DNA of 64,000 bases, taken from contig JARDYH010000002.1 of assembly GCA_029215795.1 (NCBI GenBank), positions 16,423,001 to 16,487,000 on the forward strand, read 5' to 3'. The notes below the pieces were generated by a model. It ran no database searches and was not told the origin of the DNA. It saw only the letters and a list, made by a program, of their open reading frames with translations. The translations under genes and the position numbers were made by a program. Shown in pieces: positions 3,751 through 64,000 of the stretch; position 1 is the stretch's first letter, and the number at the start of each line of letters is the position of its first letter. Source of the stretch: Anniella stebbinsi (Eukaryota; Chordata; Lepidosauria; Squamata; Anniellidae).

Positions 3751-3985
3751 TAGGGTGACCAGATTTTGAAAACCAAACTCCCTCCCCCCCGCCAACCCCC
3801 ACCCAAAACAACCCCCCCACAAAGCCACCCCCCCAAAAAACACCAGCCTGGACCTACCGGGTTCTCTTCCGCCACCCGTGCCAGGTCCTCCACTGCCACC
3901 CCCGCTGGGTCAGCCACCGCCCCCAGGTCCCCTGCCGCCGCCGGGTCTTCCTCCACCACCTCCAGGTCCTTCGCCGCCGCTGCCG
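3751..3985. repeat. C-rich tract and ~40-bp GC-rich minisatellite
   Basis: Begins GGGTGACCAGATTTTG, like a hAT terminus, then a strongly C-biased tract (3776-3845). Three or four degenerate units of about 40 bp follow, with CAGGTCC at 3882, 3924 and 3963 (spacing 42 and 39). Units are rich in CCACC and CCGCCG. No matching right terminus was found, so this is either a broken element or a local minisatellite. Confidence 0.6.
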
Positions 3986-4049
3986 GGTTTGTAAGGCCAG
4001 AGGCCGATTACATCACTTCCGGATCCGGCCCTCTCCCGTCATACAAAAA

Positions 4050-4281
4050 TATGGCAAAGAAAAACATGAACCCATAGGCTAAAGGATGAAAATGCACATT
4101 TTGGAGGGATTTGCACATTTTCAGAAGTGTACATTCATGCGAGTGTGTACTTTCCAGCAAATGCAAGTTCAAGAAATTTAGAAAAATCTGATTCCATCAA
4201 TGAACGAACAGTGGAATGAAAGATGCCTGATAATCCACGAATCATAGATGAAACAGATTTAACAAAATCTGTACATCCCTA
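4050..4281. mobile_element. Degenerate hAT-like fragment (right end TACATCCCTA)
   Basis: Ends AAATCTGTACATCCCTAAC, the complement of a TAGGGATGTACAG start. The left end could not be found. Similar material with the same end type (TCCATCCCTAG) occurs near 49135, and a TAGGGATGGAC start at 21124. Confidence 0.35.
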
Positions 4282-4589: not shown

Positions 4590-5297
4590 AATATTTTAAA
4601 GTTGCAAAGTTCTAGTATCTTTACTGTGTTTCACAGCATACTTGTATGGTATTCCCAGTGGTACCCTCTTGGAACTGAGGCTGAGAGTAGGTAAAGTTAG
4701 TTTAGTTATGTGCCTTAACTATAAGTCGATTTCAGCTTATGGCGACCCCATGAATCAGTAAACTCCAGTCGCGTCTGTTGTAAACCACCCTATCCAGATC
4801 TTGTAACTTCATGTCTGTATCTTCCTTTAAGGAGTCAATCCATCTCTTATTTGGTCTCCTTCTTTTCCTTCTACCTTGTGTTTTTCCTAACATTGAGGAG
4901 CCACATAGAAATTCTATAACAGAGGCAGCACTTGAATCCATGATTCTAAGGCCATGTCTACACCATGCAGTTATCCTGGGATCATCTCTAGGTCGTCCCT
5001 GTGCTTCCAAATAATGCACAGGGGATCCCGGGGTCAACCGGGGTTGACCTAGAGACGATCCCGGGATAACTGCAACCGCGGATATCCTGGTTTTTCTGCA
5101 GTCTCGAGAAAACCCCGAAGACCGCAGTCGGTATGGTGCGGGCTCCCGGGTCCTCAAACACTCACAGAGCTGCATGCCCATGAGGTGGGGAAGGCAGCAA
5201 TTTCGCCATCCCTGGGATGGTGCGGGGGTTTGGGCAAGTTTTTTTTAAAAAAAACATTTTCCCCCAGAACAGAGCCACACAACCAGCTCCTCTTAAA

Positions 5298-11660: not shown

Positions 11661-12116
11661 TAGGGGTGTGCACAGACCCCCCGGATCGGATCGGGACCCG
11701 GATCGGGACCTCCAATTTTGTCATGGATTGGTTCGGACAAAATTGGAGGCCCCCCGGACCGGATCGAGTCCGATCCCGATCCAAAAATCGTAAATTTTTG
11801 GATCGACCGCCATTTTTTTCCCCATAGACTTGCATTGCAATGCAAGTCTATGAGGAAAAAATGGCGGCGGGTGGGTGAGGGGGGGCCTAACTCCCTCCCC
11901 CCTGGGGCCGTCCGCTGTGGACGGCCCCGGCAGGTAAGCCCCCTCCCCCGCTTGTTGGGCGCCCGCCGATCCGCCGAACCGGTTCGGAGCCTTTTCGGAT
12001 TGGTTTGGACTGGATCAGCGGAGCCAGCTGTTGGATCGGAAATCGGATAATTTATCCGATTTCCCACTGGACCGGACTCGGATCGTGGATCGGGTCTGAT
12101 CCAGTGCACATCCCTA
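11661..12116. mobile_element. Family O hAT-type foldback, 456 bp, perfect 8-bp TSD
   Basis: Ends TAGGGGTGTGCAC and GTGCACATCCCTA. GTTCGTAC is duplicated exactly (11653-11660, 12117-12124), which is diagnostic of hAT-class transposition. Long arms are built of GGATCGGATC-type repeats, with an inner palindrome around TTGCATTGCAATGCAA and a GC-rich core holding CAGGTAAG (11931-11938). Frames of 110-183 aa on both strands are by-products of GC-rich palindromic sequence. Confidence 0.9.
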
Positions 12117-12324: not shown

Positions 12325-13215
12325 GAGCGCCATCACACCAGCAATTTATTGCACACTCGCCATGCCTGGTATGTGGTTTTGCAGTGTGATACTCACATGA
12401 TGTCGTCCCAATCCTGCACTCATCTCACCTCTTCTCCCCCTTGTTGCATTTTATTTTGGTGTGGGGAAAGTCTGGGTTATTTTCCCCTCTCATTTTTTCC
12501 TTTGTTGGGGAAAATGGATGAGTCGGTTCTCCTCCTCCAGCACATTATCGTACAGACTTGTGCTAAGTCGGTTGAATGGACTTTTTACTGCTCCAACACC
12601 ACCTCCTCTAGGCTGACCATATGAAAAGGAGGACAGGGCTCCTGTAACTTTAACAGTTGTAGAGAAAAGGGAATTTCAGCCAGTGTCATTTGTATGCAAT
12701 TAGTTCCTGGTGAAATTCCTTCTTCATCACAACTGTTAAAGTTGCAGGGGCCCTGCCTTCTTTTGTATATGGTCACTCTAGTATAGTGCCTGCAACTTTA
12801 ACGGTTGTGATGAAGAGGGAATATCACCAGGAACTAATTGCATACAAATGACACTGGCTGAAATTCCCTTTTCTCTACAACTGTTAAAGTTACAGGAGCC
12901 CTGCCCTCCTTTTCAGATGGTCAGCCTAACCCCATCATTACTTGCAGAAACGGAGCCCAGATGAAACCTTAAATCAATAAATCACTAGTCAACAAAGCCA
13001 GAGCGATGGGGGGAGAGGGCCCACACCCATCAGAGTATCACAACCAATAAAATGGAGGAGGAAGGAGAAGGGGCGGGTTGGAGTGGAGTGGAAGAGCAAA
13101 CAAGCGAAAACCCATATGAAAGGGACCATGTGTGATGGAGCCCTTGATGAGCTTATGAAATGGAGGTAAAAAAAGTGGAGGCAAACCGGGGGGGGGAATA
13201 GGTGTGGTGGAGCCC
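12325..13215 (-). mobile_element. Family G element, TSD TAC, carrying a nested A element
   Basis: Ends GAGCGCCATCACACC and GGTGTGGTGGAGCCC. TAC flanks both sides (12322-12324, 13216-13218). Reversed relative to the copies at 18187 and 35688: its right part is the complement of their CTGGTTTGCCTCC ... CTTCCACTCC region. Without the nested A copy it is about 563 bp. No coding capacity. Confidence 0.75.
12609..12928. mobile_element. Family A palindromic hAT element, 320 bp
   Basis: TAGGCTGACC ... GGTCAGCCTA. Flanks ACCTCCTC and ACCCCATC match 6 of 8. Double-palindrome layout: each half also begins and ends with a TAGNGTGACC-like motif (internal GGTCACTCTA at about 12770). Non-coding, strong hairpin. 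Confidence 0.85.
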
Positions 13216-19195: not shown

Positions 19196-19480
19196 GTAAC
19201 TTTAACAGTTGTAGAGAAAAGGGAATTTCAGCCAGTGTCATTCGTATGCAATTAGATCCTGGTGATATTTCCTCTTCATCACAACAGTTAAAGTTGCAGG
19301 GGCCCTGCCTTCTTTTGTATATGGTCACTCTAGTATAGTGCCTGCAACTTTAACTGTTGTGATGAAGAGGCAATTTCACCAGGAACTAATTGCATACAAA
19401 TGACACTGTCTGAAATTCCCTTTTCTCTACAACTGTTAAAGTTACAGGAGCCCTGTCCTCCTTTTCGTATGGTCAGCCTA
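19196..19480. mobile_element. Family A palindrome, left terminus missing
   Basis: Starts abruptly at GTAACTTTAACAG and ends GGTCAGCCTA. Otherwise co-linear with the 320-bp copies. Confidence 0.8.
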
Positions 19481-20245: not shown

Positions 20246-20565
20246 TAGGGTGACCAGATAAAATCCAGGTCACAGCTCATGTAACTTTAACAGTTGTAGA
20301 GAAAAGAGAATTTCGGCCAGAGTCATTTGTATGCAATTAGTTCCTGGTGAAATTCCCTCTTCATCACAACAGTTAAAGGTGTATGCACTATACTAGAGCG
20401 ACCATATACAAAAGAAGGCAGGGCCCCTGCAACTTTAACTGTTGTGACGAAGAAGGAATTTCACCAGGAACTAATTGCATACAAATGACACTGGCTGAAA
20501 TTCCCTTTTCTCTACAACTGTTAAAGTTACATGAGCCCTGACCTGGATTTTATCTGGTCACCCTA
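20246..20565. mobile_element. Family A palindromic hAT element, 320 bp, TSD 7/8
   Basis: TAGGGTGACCAGATAAAATC ... GGTCACCCTA. Flanks ACTCAGGC and ACCCAGGC differ at one base. Belongs to the 'AAAATCCAGGTC' subfamily with 21307 and 36774. Confidence 0.9.
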
Positions 20566-21118: not shown

Positions 21119-22532
21119 CTTAGTAGGGATGGACGGACGCATCCATGTGGACAGAAGTCATGGATGTGTTCTCCATGCAATGAGCTCCTGGCTCTCAGGG
21201 AAGAGGTTCGTTCCCTTGAGGCCAAGGTTGCTGACCTGGAGAAGCTAAGGGAGGCAGAGAAGTTGGTGGATCTCCCCAAACTGGGAGAATGGGCATTCAA
21301 ATAGCATAGGGTGACCAGATAAAATCCAGGTCAGGGCTCATGTAACTTTAACAGTTGTAGAGAAAAGGAAATTTCAGACAGTGTCATTTGTATGCAATTA
21401 GCTCCTGGTGAAATTCCTTCTTCATCACAACAGTTAAAGGTGCAGGCACTGTACTAGAGTGACCCTATACAAAAGAAGGCAGGGCCCCTGCAACTTTAAC
21501 TGTTGTGATGAAGAGGGAATTTCACCAGGAACTAATTGCATACAAATGACACTGGCTGAAATCCCCTTTTCTCTACAACTGTTAAAGTTACATGAGCCCT
21601 GACCTGGATTTTATCTGGTCACCCTAAAATAGCAAATGCAGTTCAATGTAAGCAAAAGTAAAGTGATGCATATCGGGGTAAAAAAATCCCAACTTCAAAT
21701 ATAACCTGATGGGATCTGAACTAGCTGTGACCAAACAGGAAAGAAAACTTGGGGGTTTGGTGGACAACTTGATGAAAATGTCAACCCAGTGTGTGGCTGC
21801 TATATAAAAAAAGGGGAAACTCTATGTTAGGCACAATTAGAAAAGGAATTGAGAATAGAACTGCCAATATCATACGGCCTTGATACAAATCTATGGTGTG
21901 ACCACAGTTAGAATACTGTGTACAGTTCTAGTCACCACACCGAAAAAAAGATATCGTACAGCTGGAAAAAATGCAGAGAGGGCAACTAAATGATTGAAGG
22001 GTTTACCACAATAGGGATTGTTTAGCTTGAAAAAAGGTAAGGTAAGGGAGACATCATAGAGATGTACAAAATTATGAACATGTGGAGAATGTGGTTAGGT
22101 AGACATTTTTCTCCATCTCCCATAATACTTGAACCCAGGGTCATCCCATGAAGCTGATTGGTGAAAGATCCAGGACAAAGAAAAGTAGGTACTTCTTCAC
22201 ACAACACATAGTTAAACTATGGAATTCACTTCAACAAGACACAATGATGGCCACCAATTCGGATAGCTTTAAAAGGGGGTTAGACAAATTCCTGTAGGAG
22301 AAGGCTATCAATGGCTACTAGTCCTGATGGCTATGTGCTACCTTCAGTATCAGAGGCAGTAAGCCTATATACTAGTTGCTGGGGAACATGGGCAGGAGGG
22401 TGTTGTTGCATTCCTGTCTTGCTTGTGAGTTTTTGGTTGACAGCTGGTTGGCCACTGAGTGAACAGGATGCTGGTCTAGATGGATCCTTGGTCTGATCCA
22501 GCATGGCTCTTCTTACATTCTTATGCTGTGAC
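21119..22532 (+). mobile_element. CR1 LINE with internal deletion, split by a family A element
   Basis: The 5' part (21140-21306) encodes a CR1 ORF1-like start: a CSPCNELLALREEVRSLEAK coiled coil. It then passes in frame into KLGEWAFK. After the A element (21307-21626) the frame continues as (stop in place of W) QMQFNVSKSKVMHIG, which is the reverse-transcriptase C-terminal region. So ORF1 and late ORF2 are joined, with most of ORF2 missing. The 3' end has LINE UTR sequence and ACATTCTTATG. Confidence 0.65.
21307..21626. mobile_element. Family A palindromic hAT element, 320 bp, perfect 8-bp TSD
   Basis: TAGGGTGACC ... GGTCACCCTA with AAATAGCA duplicated exactly (21299-21306, 21627-21634). 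It lies inside CR1, so A moved after that CR1 copy. Confidence 0.95.
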
Positions 22533-29939: not shown

Positions 29940-30330
29940 GCTCGAAGTATGCAGGAATGGGACCAAACTTCATACACAGCCACCCCTGGTCAGGAAGCAC
30001 CAATGTACCCTCAGAATCCTGCGCAATTACACACAAAGGAGTCAAAATTTCAGATTCCCAGAAAAAGGGAGTGGTGCAGGTAAACACTTGAAATTTTGCA
30101 GGATCAGGACAAAACTTCATACACAGCCTCCCCTAGTCAGGAGGCACCTGATGCACCATCAAAACTCTATGTGATTACACACAAAGGAGCAAAAAAAGTG
30201 GGTGCACCAAAAAGGGGATGGAGCAAATAAAACCTGGATTGTTTTCAGGATCAGGACCAAACTTCATACTCAGCCTCCCCTAGCAGGGATACACACAAGG
30301 CCCACTGAAAAACCTTTGCATTGACAAAGC
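29940..30330. repeat. Three diverged 147-bp tandem units
   Basis: AAACTTCATAC begins at 29965, 30112 and 30259: spacing exactly 147 twice despite substantial base divergence. Each unit goes on with CAGCCNCCCCT and ACACACAAAGG. Confidence 0.85.
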
Positions 30331-30450: not shown

Positions 30451-30762
30451 TAGGGTGACCGTATGGAAAGGAGGACAGGGCTCCTGTATCTTTAACAGTT
30501 GTATAGAAAGGGGAATTTCAGCCAGTGTTGTTTGCATGCAGGCAGCACCTGGTGAAATCCCCTCATCATCAAAACAGTTGAAGCTGCAGGAGCCCTGCCC
30601 TCATTTGTATCTGGTCACTCTAGTATAGCTCCAGCCTGTTGTGATGAAGAGGGAATTTCACCAGGTGCCGCATGCATACAAATAGCACCTGCTGAAATTC
30701 CCCTGTCGATACAAGTGTTAAAGATACGGTAACCCTGTCCTCCTTTTCATTTGGTCACCCTA
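30451..30762. mobile_element. Family A element (older subfamily), 312 bp, perfect 8-bp TSD
   Basis: TAGGGTGACCGTATGG ... GGTCACCCTA; ACTGTGGC duplicated exactly (30443-30450, 30763-30770). Carries the 'GTATCTTTAACAG' and 'GCATGCAGGCAGCACC' variants. Confidence 0.95.
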
Positions 30763-36773: not shown

Positions 36774-37093
36774 TAGGCTGACCAGATAAAATCCAGGTCA
36801 GGGCTCATGTAACTTTAACAGTTGTAGAGAAAAGGGAATTTCAGCCAGTGTCATTTGTATGCAATTAGTTCCTGGTGATATTCCCTCTTCATCACAACAG
36901 TTAAAGGTGCAGGCACTATACTAGAGTGACCATATACAAAAGAAGGCAGGGCTCCTCCAGCCTTAACTGTTGTGATGAAGAGGGAATTTCACCAGGAACT
37001 AATTGCATGCAAATAACACTGGCTGAAATTCCCTTTTCTCTACAACTGTTAAAGTTACATGTGCCCTGACCTGGATTTTATCTGGTCACCCTA
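36774..37093. mobile_element. Family A palindromic hAT element, 320 bp, perfect 8-bp TSD
   Basis: TAGGCTGACC ... GGTCACCCTA; CCTTGCCT duplicated exactly (36766-36773, 37094-37101). Confidence 0.95.
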
Positions 37094-43095: not shown

Positions 43096-43828
43096 ATTGT
43101 TCTTAACCATTTTTAAAGATATAAACAAATGCATATCACAAACAATAAACTTTGCAATATATGTACAACCACAAACAGTAGAACATCACAACCTCACTCC
43201 AGCAGGAAAAGTTGGGGTAAGTCCCTGACTTTTCCAGTGTGCAGCCTCGCAGGAAAGCCCCATGCCCAATGCAGAACCACCACACAGCCACCATGGAGCT
43301 TTTAAAGTGTATAGACAGCCCCTGGATTAGCATGTTGTGTAAACACCCCCACTGACCAGGTTCACACAACGGGGAGGCAGTTAACAAGCCACGGGGGCTT
43401 GTTAACTAGGCTGCATCCAGGGGGATTTGTAGAATTACCCTCAGCAGTGCAACTTGTCTTATGGTGTTAATCCAGCCAGGGTGGGTTGTTACCCATGGGA
43501 ACATGCCACCCTGGGCAGTTTTGTACAACATGAAAAGCTGCACTGGTGAAGGTAATTATGCAGATCACCCCGGCATGGAGTGTGTTTGCTCCACTCCCTC
43601 CACTATTTTGGCCATCCTTCTAGATGGATGGCTCCTGCTGCTTTTAGTCAAAAGATATTGTCTGTCTACTCTGTCTTTCCCTCCTTATTAAGTTTTCTTC
43701 GGTAAGAAAAAAGATTAAATGTGGTGGGAAAACATGGAAGGGTTACAAATGGAAGTTGGCATCTGGACCCTTGTTAATATCTGTGAATGAGGAAGGGCAA
43801 TTGCATAATAAAAGCCTCATCTGAAGCC

Positions 43829-44010
43829 AGAGCTCAGTGTTAGAGCACCTGCTTTGAATGCAGAAGGTCTCAGGTTCATCCCTGGCATCTCCAGGTAGAG
43901 CTGGAGAAACCCCTGCCTAAAACCCTGGAGAGCCTCTGCCAGTCAACAATACTAGGCGAGATGGACCAAAGGTCTGATTCAAGCAGCAACCTGTGTTCCT
44001 TCCTAAGCAC
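43829..44010 (+). mobile_element. tRNA-derived SINE (squamate type)
   Basis: A-box-like AGCTCAGTGTTAGAGC, then TTTGAATGCAGAAGGTC, B-box GGTTCATCC, then body words CATCTCCAGGTAGAGCTGG and CTGCCAGTCAACAATACT, ending AGCAACCTGTGTTCC. A retroposed tRNA-like promoter, not a tRNA gene: no anticodon arm of tRNA geometry. Confidence 0.85.
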
Positions 44011-52252: not shown

Positions 52253-52572
52253 TAGGCTGACCATATGAAAAGGAGGACAGGGCTCATGTAACTTTAACAG
52301 TGGTAGAGAAAAGGGAATTTCAGCCACTGTCATTTGTATGCAATTAGTTCCTGGTGAAATTGCCTCTTCATCACAACAGTTAAAGTTGCAGGGGCTCTGC
52401 CTTCTTTTGTATATGGTCACTCTAGTATAGCCTCTGCAACTTTAACTGTTGTGATGAAGAGGGAATTTCACCAGGAACTAATTGCATACAAATGACACTG
52501 GCTGAAATTCCCTTTTCTCTACCACTGTTAAAGTTACATGAGCCCTGTCCTCCTTTTCATATGGTCAGCCTA
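52253..52572. mobile_element. Family A palindromic hAT element, 320 bp, no TSD
   Basis: TAGGCTGACC ... GGTCAGCCTA; flanks GGTTTATA and ACTAGGGT do not match. The B half on the left has no partner on the right, so a deletion or recombination removed the other flank. Confidence 0.9.
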
Positions 52573-53165: not shown

Positions 53166-53918
53166 TTGGGCTGTGCATCACTTTGGATCCGAATCCCGAA
53201 TCAGAAGTGAATCAGGGTGATTCGGACCTCCATAAAACAGATCCAAAGCAGATCGGGGAGGTCTGAATCAATCCAAACCAAATCGGTTTGGTCTGAATCG
53301 ATTCGGATCGATTCGGCTATTTGGATATCATTTTAAGTGTTTTTCCCCATAGGGCTGCATTGGGGGAAAGAAACGCCTATAACTTTTTTTATTTTTAGAG
53401 ATAGCAACATAAAGCATGTGCACATTGCAGATGGCCTGGAGCTACTTATGTGTGGCAAATGTCAGATACAGAGGTGCAGGCATTTTGTGGCTATGAATTT
53501 TTGAAAAATGACCATTTCACTATAACTTTTTTATTTTTAGAGAAAGAAACATGAAACTTGGGCACGTTGCAGTAGATTGCCTGGAAAATTGCATTTTAAA
53601 AAATTCCTTGCGAGTAAACACCTGCACCTATGTTTCTGACATTTGTCACACATGAGTAGCTCCAGGCCATCTGCAAGGTCCCCAACTTTCATGTTTTTAT
53701 CTTTAAAAATGAAAAAGCTATAGGCATTGATTTCTCCCAATGCAAGTCTGTGGGGAAAATGAGTAATCCGAATCTCGATTCGGAGGTCCGAATCTAGCTT
53801 CGGATTTGGATCCAAAGTGAACTGGGATTGGTCTGAATCGACCCGAAGCGAATCAGGCCCAATTCGGAAATGACAAATCAGGATCTGAAGTGAATCGGGT
53901 GGTCCGTGCACAACCCTA
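53166..53918. mobile_element. Family O hAT-type foldback, 753 bp, TSD 7/8
   Basis: Ends TTGGGCTGTGCA and GTGCACAACCCTA; GTTAAAAG / GTTAAAGG flank it (53158-53165, 53919-53926). Arms of GAATCGATTCGG-type repeats. Inside, CCTATAACTTTTTTATTTTT / CATGAAACTTGGGCACGTTG units occur in both orientations, the same unit that is amplified at 60.7-62.3 kb. Confidence 0.85.
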
Positions 53919-55636: not shown

Positions 55637-56085
55637 GGGCCTGTTCAGACAACATGCTAAGCCTTGGTTAAGCCACTAACCCTTTTGCAGCAAATGGTTA
55701 GTGAGTGTGGTTAAACTGTGGTTATGTAGGATGACCATATGGAAAGGAGGACAGGGCTCCTATATCTTTAAGTATTGTTAAAGATATAGGAGCCCTGTCC
55801 TCCTTTTCATATAGCTGCAGGAGCTATACTAGAGTGACCAGATACAAAAGAGGGCAGGGCTCCTGCAGCTTGAACTGTTGTGATGAAGAGGGAATTTCAC
55901 CAGGTGCTGTATGCATACAAAGGACACCTGCTGAAATTCCTTTTCTATACAACCGTTAAAGATACAGGAGCCCTATCCTCCTTTCCATAGGGTCACCCTA
56001 TTATGTAGCCACTATGGTTAGGACTGGCTCATGACATGCTAAGCGATAATGCTTAGTTCAAAATGCTTAACCACTGAACAGGGTC
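55637..56085. mobile_element. Family E element, TSD TAT, with nested A
   Basis: Ends GGGCCTGTTCAGAC and GAACAGGGTC; TAT duplicated (55634-55636, 56086-56088). TGCTAAGC / GCTTAACC words in the arms. An A element occupies the middle. Confidence 0.75.
55727..56000. mobile_element. Family A element (older subfamily), shortened to 274 bp
   Basis: TAGGATGACC ... GGTCACCCTA; TTATGTA-type flanks repeat on both sides (7 bp). The left half has lost about 45 bp by joining TCTTTAAGTATTGTTAAAGA. Confidence 0.85.
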
Positions 56086-56983: not shown

Positions 56984-57338
56984 GGCCCCCTCCACAAGGA
57001 TGCGCTTTTGCGCCCGGTTCCGCGATTATGCGCATTATCGCGGAGGCGCTTTTACTCCTAATCCCTCTGCACCGGAGGCGGCGAGAGGCGGCGAAGCGCA
57101 TGAATTCATGTCCAAAAAGCGCTTTACAAGCAGTTAATGCGCGTAATCGCTTGTTCACACCGCGAAAATGCGCTTTAACGGCCGGAGCAAAATAAAAGTC
57201 GCTATTTAACGCGCGTTCGAAAATGCGCATTATCGGGGAGATAACGCGCCTGTACGCCCGTTTTGCGCTCCGTGCTTGTGGAGGTAAATTTTTTAATGAG
57301 CCTTCAAGGCTCATTAAATGTCTCGTGTGGAGGAGGCC
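56984..57338. mobile_element. Family I CpG-dense MITE, 355 bp, TSD TAG
   Basis: Ends GGCCCCCTCCACAAG and CGTGTGGAGGAGGCC; TAG duplicated (56981-56983, 57339-57341). The interior is dense in GCGC and CG words (GCGCATTATCGCG, AATGCGCTTTAACGG), many repeated in both orientations. No coding capacity. Confidence 0.85.
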
Positions 57339-60110: not shown

Positions 60111-60719
60111 TAAAATGCCAACTCCCTTGAAGAGGCATGGACCATGGCAGGATCTCATGCCAGGTCCACCTAAGGCCAAGCAAACAAGATAAAGGACCTG
60201 GGAATGATAACTGATGTCACTTCTTTGTACAAAATTTTTGATAACTATACAAATAGTAAATGATACAAATGATTAAAATTGGCAGACAATATTTTGAACA
60301 ATATGTGAGCCTAGCAATGAGCAAACAGGACCATGCTAATTAAGCTAATCCATTTAAAAAAACTGTGAGTGAGTATGAATTTCCAACAACATTGGCATTA
60401 TAAATAATTTACTGTGCAATTTAACAATGTTGCTATACAAATAAAGGTATATAATGTACATTAATGAACTGTATATCCATATTACCTCAACTGTACAGTA
60501 TATCCATATTCACTCAAAGAGACCTTCGATAACAACAATGGTGAATTTAAATTAGGGGTGTGCATCGGATCGGATCCGATCCACGATCCGAATCCGATCC
60601 GACCCAAAATCGGGAAAATCCGATCCGATCCAATCCGATCCGACCAACCTCCGATCCGATCCGATCCGACGAGGTCCGATCCGGATCGGACGCCATTTTG
60701 AATGCTTTTTCCCATAGCC

Positions 60720-62275
60720 AAATATTGTTTTACAAAAACGCCTATAACTTTTTCATTTTTAAAGATAAAAGGATGAAACTTGGGCACATTGTAGACTGGT
60801 TAGGGATAGTTATCAGTGAGAAATTTCAGAAAGTTTGGTGCATGCGTTTTGTGGCAATTAATTTTTTAATAAATACCCAGGAATGCTTATAACTTTGTCA
60901 TTTTTAAAGTTACAAACATGAAACTTTGCCACATTGTAGGAGGTACCTTGGGACCTATGTGTGTGAAATTTCAGAAACATAGGTGCTTGCCTTGTGTGGC
61001 AATTAATTTTAGAAAAATGGGTAGTAGTGGGGTAAATACAGTTACGCCTCCCATTTTTTTATTTTTAAAGATACAAACAGGAAACCTGGGCACATTACAG
61101 GTACCACTTGCCTTGATATGTGAGTGAAATTTCAGAAACATTGGAGCTTGCCTTGTGTGGCAATTAAGTTTTGAAACAATGAGGAAAGAAACACCTATAA
61201 CTTTGTCATTTTTAAAGTTACACACATGAAACTTTGCCACATTGTAGGTGGTACCTTGGGACCTATGTGTGTGAAATTTCAGAAACATAGGTGCTTGCCT
61301 TGTGTGGCAATTAATTTTAGAAAAATGGGTAGTAGTGGGGTAAATACAGTTATGCCTCCCATTTTTTTAGTTTTGAAGATACAAACAGGAAACTTGGGCA
61401 CATTACAGGGAACACTTCACTTGATATGTGTGTAAAATTTCAGAAACATTGGTGCTTGCCTGGTGTGGCAATTAATTTTTGAAACAATGAGGGATTCATT
61501 GGACAGCACTTACCCATAGGGATTCATTGGAGAGTACTTGTCCATAGGGAATCATTGGAAAGCACTTTTCCATAGGGAATCATTGCATTGCACTTTCCCA
61601 CTGAGAAATGCAGTTATGCCTCCCACATTTTTATTTTTGAAGATACAAACAGGAAACTTGGGCACATTGTAGACTGGTTAGGGATAGTTATCTGTGAGAA
61701 ATTTCAGAAAGATTGGTGCATGCATTTTGTGGCAATTAATTTTTTAATAAATACGCAGGAATGCCTATAACTTTGTCATTTTTAAAGTTACACACATGAA
61801 ACTTTGCCACATTGTAGGTGGTACCTTGGGACCTATGTGTGTGAAATTTCAAAAACGTAGGTGCTTGCCTTGTATGGCAATTAATTTTAGAAAAATGGGT
61901 AGTAGTGGGGTAAATACAGTTACGCCTCCCATTTTTTTATTTTTAAAGATACAAACAGGAAACCTGGGCACATTACAGGTACCACTTGCCTTGATATGTG
62001 AGTGAAATTTCAGAAACATTGGAGCTTGCCTTGTGTGGCAATTAAGTTTTGAAACAATGAGGAAAGAAACACCTATAACTTTGTCATTTTTAAAGTTACA
62101 CACATGAAACTTTGCCACATTGTAGGTGGTACCTTGGGACCTATGTGTGTGAAATTTCAGAAACGTAGGTGTTTGCCTTGTATGGCAATTAATTTTAGAA
62201 AAATGGGTAGTAGTGGGGTAAATACAGTTATGCCTCCCATTTTTTTTTATTTTTAAAGATACAAACAGGAAACCT
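60720..62275. repeat. Tandem array of ~145/160-bp alternating units
   Basis: GAAAC(T/C)T(T/G)GSC anchors lie at about 60774, 60918, 61078, 61225, 61386, 61649, 61794, 61955, 62104 and 62267. Spacings alternate 144-149 and 160-163, a ~307-bp dimeric higher-order repeat. One gap of 263 marks an inserted minisatellite. Confidence 0.85.
61487..61600. repeat. 28-bp minisatellite, four units
   Basis: CATTGG/CATTGC at 61497, 61525, 61553 and 61581: exact 28-bp period. The unit contains CCATAGGGAATCATTGG, the 'CCCATAG' word also found at O-element arm/core borders. Confidence 0.85.
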
Positions 62276-62317
62276 GGAAGCAGTATGTATTATTACTTTT
62301 TTAAAAAATGTAATTAG

Positions 62318-62520
62318 TAGGATGACCATATGAAAAGGAATACAGGGCTTTAACAGTGGAATAGAAAAGGGAATTTCAGCAGGTGTCATTTGTATCCATG
62401 CGGCACCTGGTGAAATTCCCTCTTCATCACAAAAGTTAAAATTGCAGGAGCTCTGCTCTCTTTTGTATCTGGTCACTCTAGTATAGCTCCTGCAGCTTTA
62501 ACTGTCATATGGTCACCCTT
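62318..62520. mobile_element. Family A element, internally deleted, ~203 bp
   Basis: TAGGATGACCATATGAAAAG ... CATATGGTCACCCTT; the second half is mostly missing. No matching 8-bp flank. GGAAGCAGTATGT (62276-62288) and ACATACTGCTTCC (about 62528-62540) flank it as an inverted pair. Confidence 0.75.
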
Positions 62521-62699
62521 GTTTCCCAACATACTGCTTCCAATACGGTAGGTAGAATATTTGCCTCTTTATGATCTCAAGCCTAAAAAAAATAAACATT
62601 TGTACACACCAGTCTCCTGGTACTGGTCATCCTACTATTAATTAATTGTAGCTGATAGGAAAGGGTTAAATCGTGGGAGCTGCAAGGAATTAAGAAAAA

Positions 62700-63430
62700 A
62701 GGAGAGGGGGTTTTGCCATTTTTTGAGCGCTCCTTAATTAGGGCTGCCCAAATGATAATGGACGGGTGGTGTGTGTGCGCGCGCGGGCGGCGGCGGCGGG
62801 CTTGGCAGCGTATCCTCCTGGCTGCCGAGGCCGGGTGTCTGGAGCGGAGCACGCGCTGTCAGTTGGTGAGCGGAGGGGCCATTGAACGCCCTCCCCATCA
62901 TCCTCTTCATCATCAACCTACCCCCGCGGCCCAGCGGAGCACAACAGCCTGCATTAGGCAAGCCCTTCAGGAGCCTCACAGCAGCCAGGCAGAGCCTCTG
63001 CTGCCCAGGAACCGGCCCGCACGCGAGGGCACCGGCGGGGCGCACACACAACGCCGGCGAGGGGGAGGAGAAGGGGAGGAACAAAGGATCAAAGAGATCG
63101 AGAGAGAGTGATCCTTCCTTGCACGCATGGCTGCAAAACTGAGCTAGGTTCAGCCGTTCTGCTTGAGTAAAAAGTGAAAGCAGACACGAGCCCTGTAATG
63201 GATACTAGCAACAGGATCAAAGGGATCGAGATGAGAGAGATCCTTCCTTGCACGCATGGCTGCAAAACTCAGCTAGGCTCAGCCGTTCTGCTTGAGTAAA
63301 AAGTGAAAGCAGACACGAGCCCTGTAATGGATACTAGCAACAGGATCAAAGGGATCGAGAAGAGAGAGTGTTTCCTTTTCTTCGCGGGAAGCGGGAGGGG
63401 GAAGAGGGGAAGACCGGGCCTCTGTGGAAA
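62700..63430 (+). promoter_or_regulatory. CpG-rich block resembling a promoter/5' UTR
   Basis: Sharp change to GC- and CpG-rich sequence (GCGCGCGGGCGGCGGCGGCG at 62778) in an AT-rich setting. A strong donor-like TTG|GTGAGC lies at 62866, and two full plus one partial 128-bp direct repeats follow. Frames of 86-132 aa across it overlap in several phases and show no domain. Either a captured or resident CpG island with a non-coding first exon, or an unusual transposon core; which host gene, if any, cannot be told. Confidence 0.4.
63085..63370 (+). repeat. 128/129-bp direct repeat, two units and a partial third
   Basis: AGGATCAAAG begins at 63085, 63213 and 63342. Units 1 and 2 differ at only a few bases over CCTTCCTTGCACGCATGGCT, GTTCTGCTTGAGTAAAAAGT and GAGCCCTGTAATGGATACTA; recent duplication. 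Confidence 0.9.
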
Positions 63431-64000
63431 ATTTTTTGAAACATTTTATCTAAAAATTCCATAGCCATCAAATGCCTGGACCTATCATTCTGAAATTTCT
63501 GACACATATCTACCCCTAACCCATCTACAAAGTGAGCAATGTTCAGACTTCTAACTTTTAAAATAAAAAGGTTATAGGCGTTTCTTTCCTCATTGTTTCA
63601 AAATTAATTGCCACACAAGGCAAGCTCCAATGTTTCTGAAATTTTACACACATATCAAGTGAAGTGTTCCCTGTAATGTGCCCAAGTTTCCTGTTTGTAT
63701 CTTCAAAACTAAAAAAATGGGAGGCATAACTGTATTTACCCCACTACTACCCATTTTTCTAAAATTAATTGCCACACAAGGCAAGCACCTATGTTTCTGA
63801 AATTTCACACGCATAGGTCCCAAGGTACCACCTACAATGTGGCAAAGTTTCATGTGTGTAACTTTAAAAATGACAAAGTTATAGGTGTTTCTTTCCTCAT
63901 TGTTTCAAAACTTAATTGCCACACAAGGCAAGCTCCAATGTTTCTGAAATTTCACTCACATATCAAGGCAAGTGGTCCCTGTAATGTGCCCAGGTTTCCT
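63430..64000. repeat. Inverted arm of the 60.7-kb array
   Basis: CCTCATTGTTTCAAAATTAA, TTTCTGAAATTTTACACACA and ATGTGGCAAAGTTTCATGTG are complements of array unit words at 61180-61480 and 60918-61020. Continues past the window. Confidence 0.9.

What the first reader, a model, noticed from the sequence alone, without database searches (positions are those of the whole stretch)
60553..64000. Foldback hAT-type structure whose two array arms enclose a CpG-rich, promoter-like core
A family O terminus with TAGGGGTGTGCA starts at 60553. A tandem array follows, then ~0.7 kb of CpG-rich DNA with a splice-donor-like site and fresh direct repeats, then the same array inverted. The 753-bp O copy at 53166 shows the same symmetric plan without the CpG core. 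This fits a non-autonomous element that captured a host CpG island/first exon (Pack-type capture), or arms assembled around a resident promoter. Either would be unusual in a vertebrate hAT family.
Basis: partly seen in the sequence, partly recalled or inferred. Interest (0 to 1): 0.75.

Follow-up and report, generated by a model that had tools for sequence, protein, structure and literature searches.

The report
Foldback DNA transposon with CpG-rich middle
A non-autonomous cut-and-paste transposon, probably from a vertebrate, has long mirror-image arms made of tandem repeats; between them lies a CpG-rich stretch that may be a captured piece of host promoter, but its right end is off the window, so the capture is not proven and would be an example of something already known in animals.

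Summary
The anatomy is real. A hAT-like end (TAGGGGTGTGCA, preceded by ATTTAAAT) starts at 60553. A left arm of alternating ~147/161-bp units runs to 62277; the same units return inverted from 63442 to the window edge, 98.8% identical to the left arm over 414 bp. 62641-63441 is CpG-rich (observed/expected 0.73; window 0.28), single-copy in the window, with a 129-bp tandem duplication. Both arms break off inside a repeat unit with no inner terminus, so one interrupted foldback fits better than two flanking elements. Best reading: a non-autonomous hAT foldback whose middle is foreign DNA, possibly a host CpG-island segment taken up by template-switching repair. Capture is not shown: the right terminus lies beyond the window, no parental copy could be sought, the "splice donor" matches 6 of 9 consensus positions, and the two other densest CpG stretches of the window lie in transposon-like elements. 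Such capture is not unusual: 208 of 370 published animal Pack-TIRs are hAT, including a frog 5'-UTR capture; tandem-repeat foldback arms are known from Drosophila Tetris. New member of a known kind; modest interest.

The parts
60545..60552 (.). ATTTAAAT, candidate left target-site duplication
   Evidence: one search finds 7 ATTTAAAT in the window, so the motif alone proves nothing; none of the 7 lies right of 60545, so its partner, if any, is beyond the window
60553..60564 (+). left hAT-like terminus TAGGGGTGTGCA
   Evidence: relatives at 11661 and 53166
60565..60700 (+). subterminal GATCCG/CGGATC repeats (12 motifs and 21 CpG in 60553-60700), putative transposase sites
   Evidence: role inferred
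60736..61489 (+). left arm, first block: units u1-u5, head type then alternating types B/A
61490..61600 (+). 28-bp x 4 tandem repeat between the two blocks
61614..62277 (+). left arm, second block: units u6-u10, a copy of the first block 878 bp downstream (25 differences in 653 aligned columns); u10 broken off at 62277
62278..62317 (.). 40-bp junction filler; 62275-62288 recurs inverted at 62529-62542
62318..62634 (+). damaged old MITE (left half 80-89% identical to 8 other window copies; right half not recognisable; no clean target-site duplication seen)
62641..63441 (.). core, CpG-rich from about 62.75 kb, single copy in the window
63104..63361 (+). 129-bp tandem duplication (63104-63232 and 63233-63361), 4 differences
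63442..63583 (-). right arm, innermost unit v6, older type (72% to u1, 70% to u6 and to the 53166 unit x1, 54-61% to A/B units except 63% to the truncated u10)
63584..64000 (-). right arm, units v5, v4, v3 (99% to u5, u4, u3), cut by the window edge

Best explanation
A non-autonomous hAT-type foldback transposon. A transposase supplied from elsewhere would act on the TAGGGGTGTGCA ends and the subterminal GATCCG repeats (inferred). The long inverted arms grew by unequal duplication (about 150-bp unit, then 308-bp dimer, then 878-bp block) and were kept alike by exchange or conversion (inferred from the identities). A break inside the arrays was filled by template switching with about 1.16 kb of other genomic DNA, carrying an old MITE and a CpG-island-like segment (inferred). 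Shown: both arms, both breaks inside units, the change in CpG content, the old MITE inside the insert. Not shown: the right terminus, the source of the core, mobility, transcription.
For: Arms 98.8% identical and inverted. Left break inside u10 after CCTGG and right break after v6, neither with an inner terminus. Two relatives with 8-bp-type duplications, 8/8 and 7/8, one of them with array-like units in a self-complementary plan. The enclosed MITE is 80-89% identical to its 8 relatives, while arm units of one type are up to 99-100% alike, so the insert looks older than the present arms. CpG observed/expected changes from 0.16 to 0.73 to 0.11 across MITE part, core and right arm. Two 14-bp exact inverted repeats at the left junction: one of 13 bp or more arose in 7 of 1000 simulated sequences.
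Against: No right terminus and no second ATTTAAAT right of 60545 in the window. No parental copy of the core known. In real DNA of this window 49 of 256 comparable stretches hold a 13-bp exact inverted repeat, so the junction repeats are weak evidence. Young-looking arms may be an effect of conversion, so arm identity does not date the insertion. CpG-rich DNA occurs inside other transposon-like elements here.
Confidence: 0.5

Rival explanations
1. The CpG-rich core is not host promoter DNA but the element's own variable middle domain, or another CpG-rich transposon nested in it.
For: The two other densest 400-bp CpG stretches of the window lie in the 11661-12116 relative (37 CpG, observed/expected 0.94) and in an inverted-repeat element near 56984-57338 that I take for a transposon. 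Foldback elements can have middles of variable composition (Tetris). No splice donor of 7/9 or better, no Rfam family at the gathering score, and no Pfam domain at E 0.01 in 12 of 12 core ORFs scanned.
Against: The core shares no sequence with either CpG-rich element or with any other place in the window at E 1e-4, has no terminal inverted repeats of its own that I could see, and lacks the subterminal motifs (0 in 801 bp).
Confidence: 0.27
2. A resident host promoter flanked by arms: the CpG island sits at its ancestral place and array DNA accumulated on both sides (two truncated insertions in opposite orientation).
For: A CpG-rich stretch with CpG-poor DNA and an old MITE upstream is what an ordinary unmethylated island looks like.
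Against: Neither inner end has a terminus, so two separate truncations are needed. The two arms are 98.8% identical in inverted order over 414 bp. No host coding exon was recognised with confidence by Pfam among 130 ORFs of 80 aa or more in the window and 135 of 48-79 aa from about 43.8 kb on; short exons would be missed.
Confidence: 0.13
3. A composite (macro) transposon: two neighbouring hAT elements whose outer ends act together on the DNA between. Such events are known for maize Ac/Ds (recalled, not looked up).
For: The arms are unequal inside: block duplicated on the left, extra old unit v6 on the right.
Against: Inner termini of the two elements would be expected; none found with up to 2 mismatches. 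The 53166 relative shows that one element alone can have a self-complementary plan.
Confidence: 0.08

Closest known systems
Animal Pack-TIRs, hAT class, e.g. Pack-hAT-N8_XT with CAPSL 5' UTR (Tan et al. 2021, PMC8277862)
   Same: Non-TE DNA between the two ends of a hAT element in a vertebrate; breaks internal to the element; possible microhomology at a junction
   Different: Parental copy and second terminus not established here; insert 1.16 kb against a published median of 224 bp; long tandem-array arms
Ssk-FB4, Drosophila foldback element carrying the gene Ssk (same paper)
   Same: Foldback element with long inverted arms enclosing captured DNA that includes a 5' upstream region
   Different: FB4 has 9-10-bp duplications and is assigned there to MULEs; Ssk-FB4 is multicopy and transcribed, neither of which is known here
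Tetris, Drosophila virilis (Dias et al. 2014, PMC4079207)
   Same: Apparently non-autonomous foldback; flanking domain, ~220-bp tandem repeats in the TIRs, inner domain, middle domain of variable composition; 8-10-bp duplications
   Different: No sequence comparison made; here ~150-bp units in A/B dimers, hAT-like ends, CpG-rich middle
Galileo, Drosophila, P superfamily (Marzo et al. 2013, PMC3688188, abstract only)
   Same: Long internally repetitive TIRs; the abstract proposes that multiple transposase sites in them give binding specificity
   Different: Different superfamily; no binding data here

Membership tests
hAT superfamily (non-autonomous) | 8-bp target-site duplication | tested here: inconclusive
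   Relatives: 8/8 at 11661, 7/8 at 53166. For the 60553 copy only the left side is in the window
hAT superfamily (non-autonomous) | Short terminal inverted repeat at both ends | tested here: inconclusive
   Left end present; right end not in window
hAT superfamily (non-autonomous) | Mobilised by a hAT transposase | not testable with these tools
   No transposase domain among the Pfam results for 265 ORFs and no assay
Foldback elements (Tetris-like plan) | Long inverted arms built of tandem repeats around a variable middle | tested here: met
   plan compared with PMC4079207 section 10
Pack-TIR | Both termini of one TIR element flank the insert | tested here: inconclusive
   Left only; criterion read in PMC8277862 methods
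Pack-TIR | Unique parental copy elsewhere, found at 90% identity or more and without TEs in its flanking 100 bp | tested here: inconclusive
   No second copy in the window. Host genome search not answered, 11 of 11 tries
Host CpG-island promoter / first exon | CpG island composition | tested here: met
   62641-63441 GC 0.56, observed/expected 0.73
Host CpG-island promoter / first exon | Good splice donor at exon end | tested here: not met
   0 sites of 7/9 or better in 62640-63440 on either strand
Host CpG-island promoter / first exon | Transcription start or orthologous gene | not testable with these tools
   No vertebrate genome or expression data searchable here

The most novel reading that the evidence does not exclude
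The element is a mobile, multicopy carrier of a working CpG-island promoter: foldback arms spread an unmethylated host start site through a vertebrate genome and seed new transcripts.
Probability: 0.07. Interest if true: 0.75.

Novelty: new member of a known kind. Interest (0 to 1): 0.3.

Why it matters
If the core is a captured promoter, this is a vertebrate parallel to Ssk-FB4: a foldback element able to move a regulatory start site. The parts put events at one locus in a relative order (old MITE, CpG-rich insert, recently homogenised arrays), so it would be a readable example of how array-bearing foldbacks take up DNA. As it stands it adds one unproven case to a class already counted in hundreds.

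Tried and rejected
Two intact flanking elements: rejected because no inner terminus was found. Core as a repeat of the window: no second copy. Core as coding exon: no Pfam family at E 0.01 in 12 of 12 core ORFs scanned. In the wider scans, reverse transcriptase matched 2 of 130 longer ORFs (best E 1e-07) and 1 of 135 shorter ones (E 0.0025); seven other families, one ORF each with E 0.0016 to 0.0074, were not traced to positions and I treat them as chance. Core as known RNA: nothing there at gathering score; the E-value scan of 62278-63445 gave 6 weak hits, four miRNA families on the MITE hairpin and two others at 62607-62690 and 62715-62841, all far below their cut-offs. Core pieces in print: six 16-17-base pieces, 0 papers. 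Terminus in print: 11 papers matched at least one of six sequence terms, none with a transposon title (listing only). Traces of the host in other collections: 0 matches in viral contigs for two array pieces and one core piece. One 18-base core piece hit 4 bacterial contigs, best match 19 bases in each, which I take as chance in that much sequence. Splice-donor support: dropped.

CpG richness as proof of a host island: dropped. Besides the two elements named above, two more stretches, 3751-4175 and 4951-5250, also passed the composition filter; I did not look into them.

Full report
What is there. The window carries a terminus TAGGGGTGTGCA at 60553 with ATTTAAAT directly before it. The first 148 bp hold 12 GATCCG/CGGATC motifs and 21 CpG, which look little decayed. 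From 60736 a tandem array follows. I cut it into 10 units. Units u2, u4, u7, u9 form type B (94-98% alike), u3, u5, u8 and the truncated u10 type A (91-100%), and u1 and u6 are head units (88%). The pair of types makes a 308-bp dimer. A block of 878 bp is repeated: 60747-61397 against 61625-62277, 25 differences in 653 columns. A 28-bp unit repeated four times lies between the blocks.

The inverted arm. From 63442 to the window edge the array runs on the other strand. Units v3, v4, v5 are 99% identical to u3, u4, u5; over 61079-61492 against 64000-63588 the identity is 98.8% (alignment). The innermost unit v6 is of an older type, nearer to u1 (72%), u6 (70%) and the 53166 unit x1 (70%) than to the A/B units (54-61%, 63% for truncated u10), and has no close counterpart in the left arm.

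What lies between. The left arm breaks off at 62277 inside u10, after CCTGG; the right arm ends about 63442 after v6. In fact 62278-62640 is CpG-poor (2 CpG in 363 bp) and holds a damaged MITE beginning at 62318, 80-89% identical to eight other copies in the window. The CpG-rich part lies in 62641-63441: 45 CpG, observed/expected 0.73, against 0.28 for the window. It is dense from about 62.75 to 63.15 kb and weaker after that. It has no second copy in the window. It contains a 129-bp tandem duplication with 4 differences.

Relatives in the window. The 11661-12116 element has the terminus at both ends (one mismatch on the right) and a perfect 8-bp duplication, but no array units recognisable by BLAST. 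The 53166-53918 element has 7 of 8 in its duplication, array-like units (73 and 76% to u1 for its two longer units) and one self-complementary match over 419 of its 753 bases; folded as RNA it is 20 standard deviations more stable than 20 shuffles. These support a hAT-like origin for the group and show that a self-complementary plan occurs in it. They are relatives rather than close copies.

Why one interrupted element. Neither inner end carries a terminus; the only match in 60601-64000 needs 3 mismatches and lies inside an array unit. Two separate insertions would need two truncations inside the arrays. A single foldback with a replaced middle needs none beyond the insert. The old MITE inside the insert, next to near-identical arms, suggests that the insert is older DNA than the present state of the arms. 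Arm identity may however reflect conversion rather than age.

How the insert could have arrived. At the left junction 62275-62288 recurs inverted at 62529-62542, and 62315-62328 recurs inverted at 62624-62637, both exact over 14 bases. This could be template switching during repair. In simulated sequences an exact inverted repeat of 13 or more arose in 7 of 1000, but 49 of 256 real stretches of the same window have one, and the second pair may simply be the MITE's own ends. I count it as weak support.

What speaks against a captured first exon. The splice-donor-like site matches 6 of 9 consensus positions, and no site of 7 or better occurs in the core on either strand, though the window averages 2.1 per kb per strand. 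CpG richness is not specific: the two other densest 400-bp CpG stretches are the 11661 relative and an inverted-repeat element near 57000 that I take for a transposon, without a clean duplication; two further stretches, 3751-4175 and 4951-5250, passed the filter and were not examined. No protein domain was found in 12 of 12 core ORFs and no RNA family reached its gathering score there.

Comparison with what is known. Tan et al. 2021 (PMC8277862; abstract, parts 1 and 2 of 4 of the Results, sections 10 and 14 and passages read) found 370 Pack-TIRs in 100 animal genomes, 208 of them hAT, 38 (all superfamilies) in the American alligator, and one frog hAT holding 291 bp of the CAPSL 5' UTR. They also describe Ssk-FB4, a fly foldback carrying a gene with its upstream region. 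Tetris (PMC4079207; abstract and section 10) has the same layered plan of flanking domain, tandem repeats, inner domain and variable middle. For Galileo only the abstract was read: repetitive TIRs may give transposase specificity. Seven paper searches by topic listed no vertebrate hAT foldback with this combination, as far as titles and abstract starts of the papers listed show; two of them held several hundred papers, of which 20 and 10 were listed. So the combination may be undescribed, but each part has a precedent.

Verdict. A real foldback element with hAT-like left end and a foreign-looking CpG-rich middle. Whether the middle is a captured promoter, a resident promoter or transposon DNA is open, because the window ends 417 bp into the matching part of the right arm and the host genome search did not complete (11 of 11 tries). 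Interest 0.3.

Noticed in passing
12609-12928, 19200-19480, 20285-20526, 21346-21587, 30451-30762, 36813-37054, 52253-52572, 55713-56003: Eight further copies of one foldback MITE family (end TAGGxTGACCATATG in several); the 30451 copy seems flanked by ACTGTGGC on both sides, which suggests 8-bp duplications and a hAT-type MITE.
   Followed up: partly
56984-57338: The CpG-densest 400-bp stretch of the window (38 CpG) overlaps a separate inverted-repeat element with ends GGCCCCCTCCACA / TGTGGAGGAGGCC; no clean duplication seen.
   Followed up: partly
11931: Strong donor-like site CAG|GTAAGC (8 of 9) inside the GC-rich middle of the 11661-12116 hAT relative.
   Followed up: no
43823-43890: tRNA-like match just above the Rfam gathering score (31 bits, cut-off 29) that ARAGORN does not call a tRNA; possibly a SINE head.
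   Followed up: no
29960-30287: 147-bp unit repeated 2.2 times, 78% matches.
   Followed up: no
62363-62427: Hairpin inside the MITE gives weak hits to four miRNA families, all well below their gathering scores.
   Followed up: no
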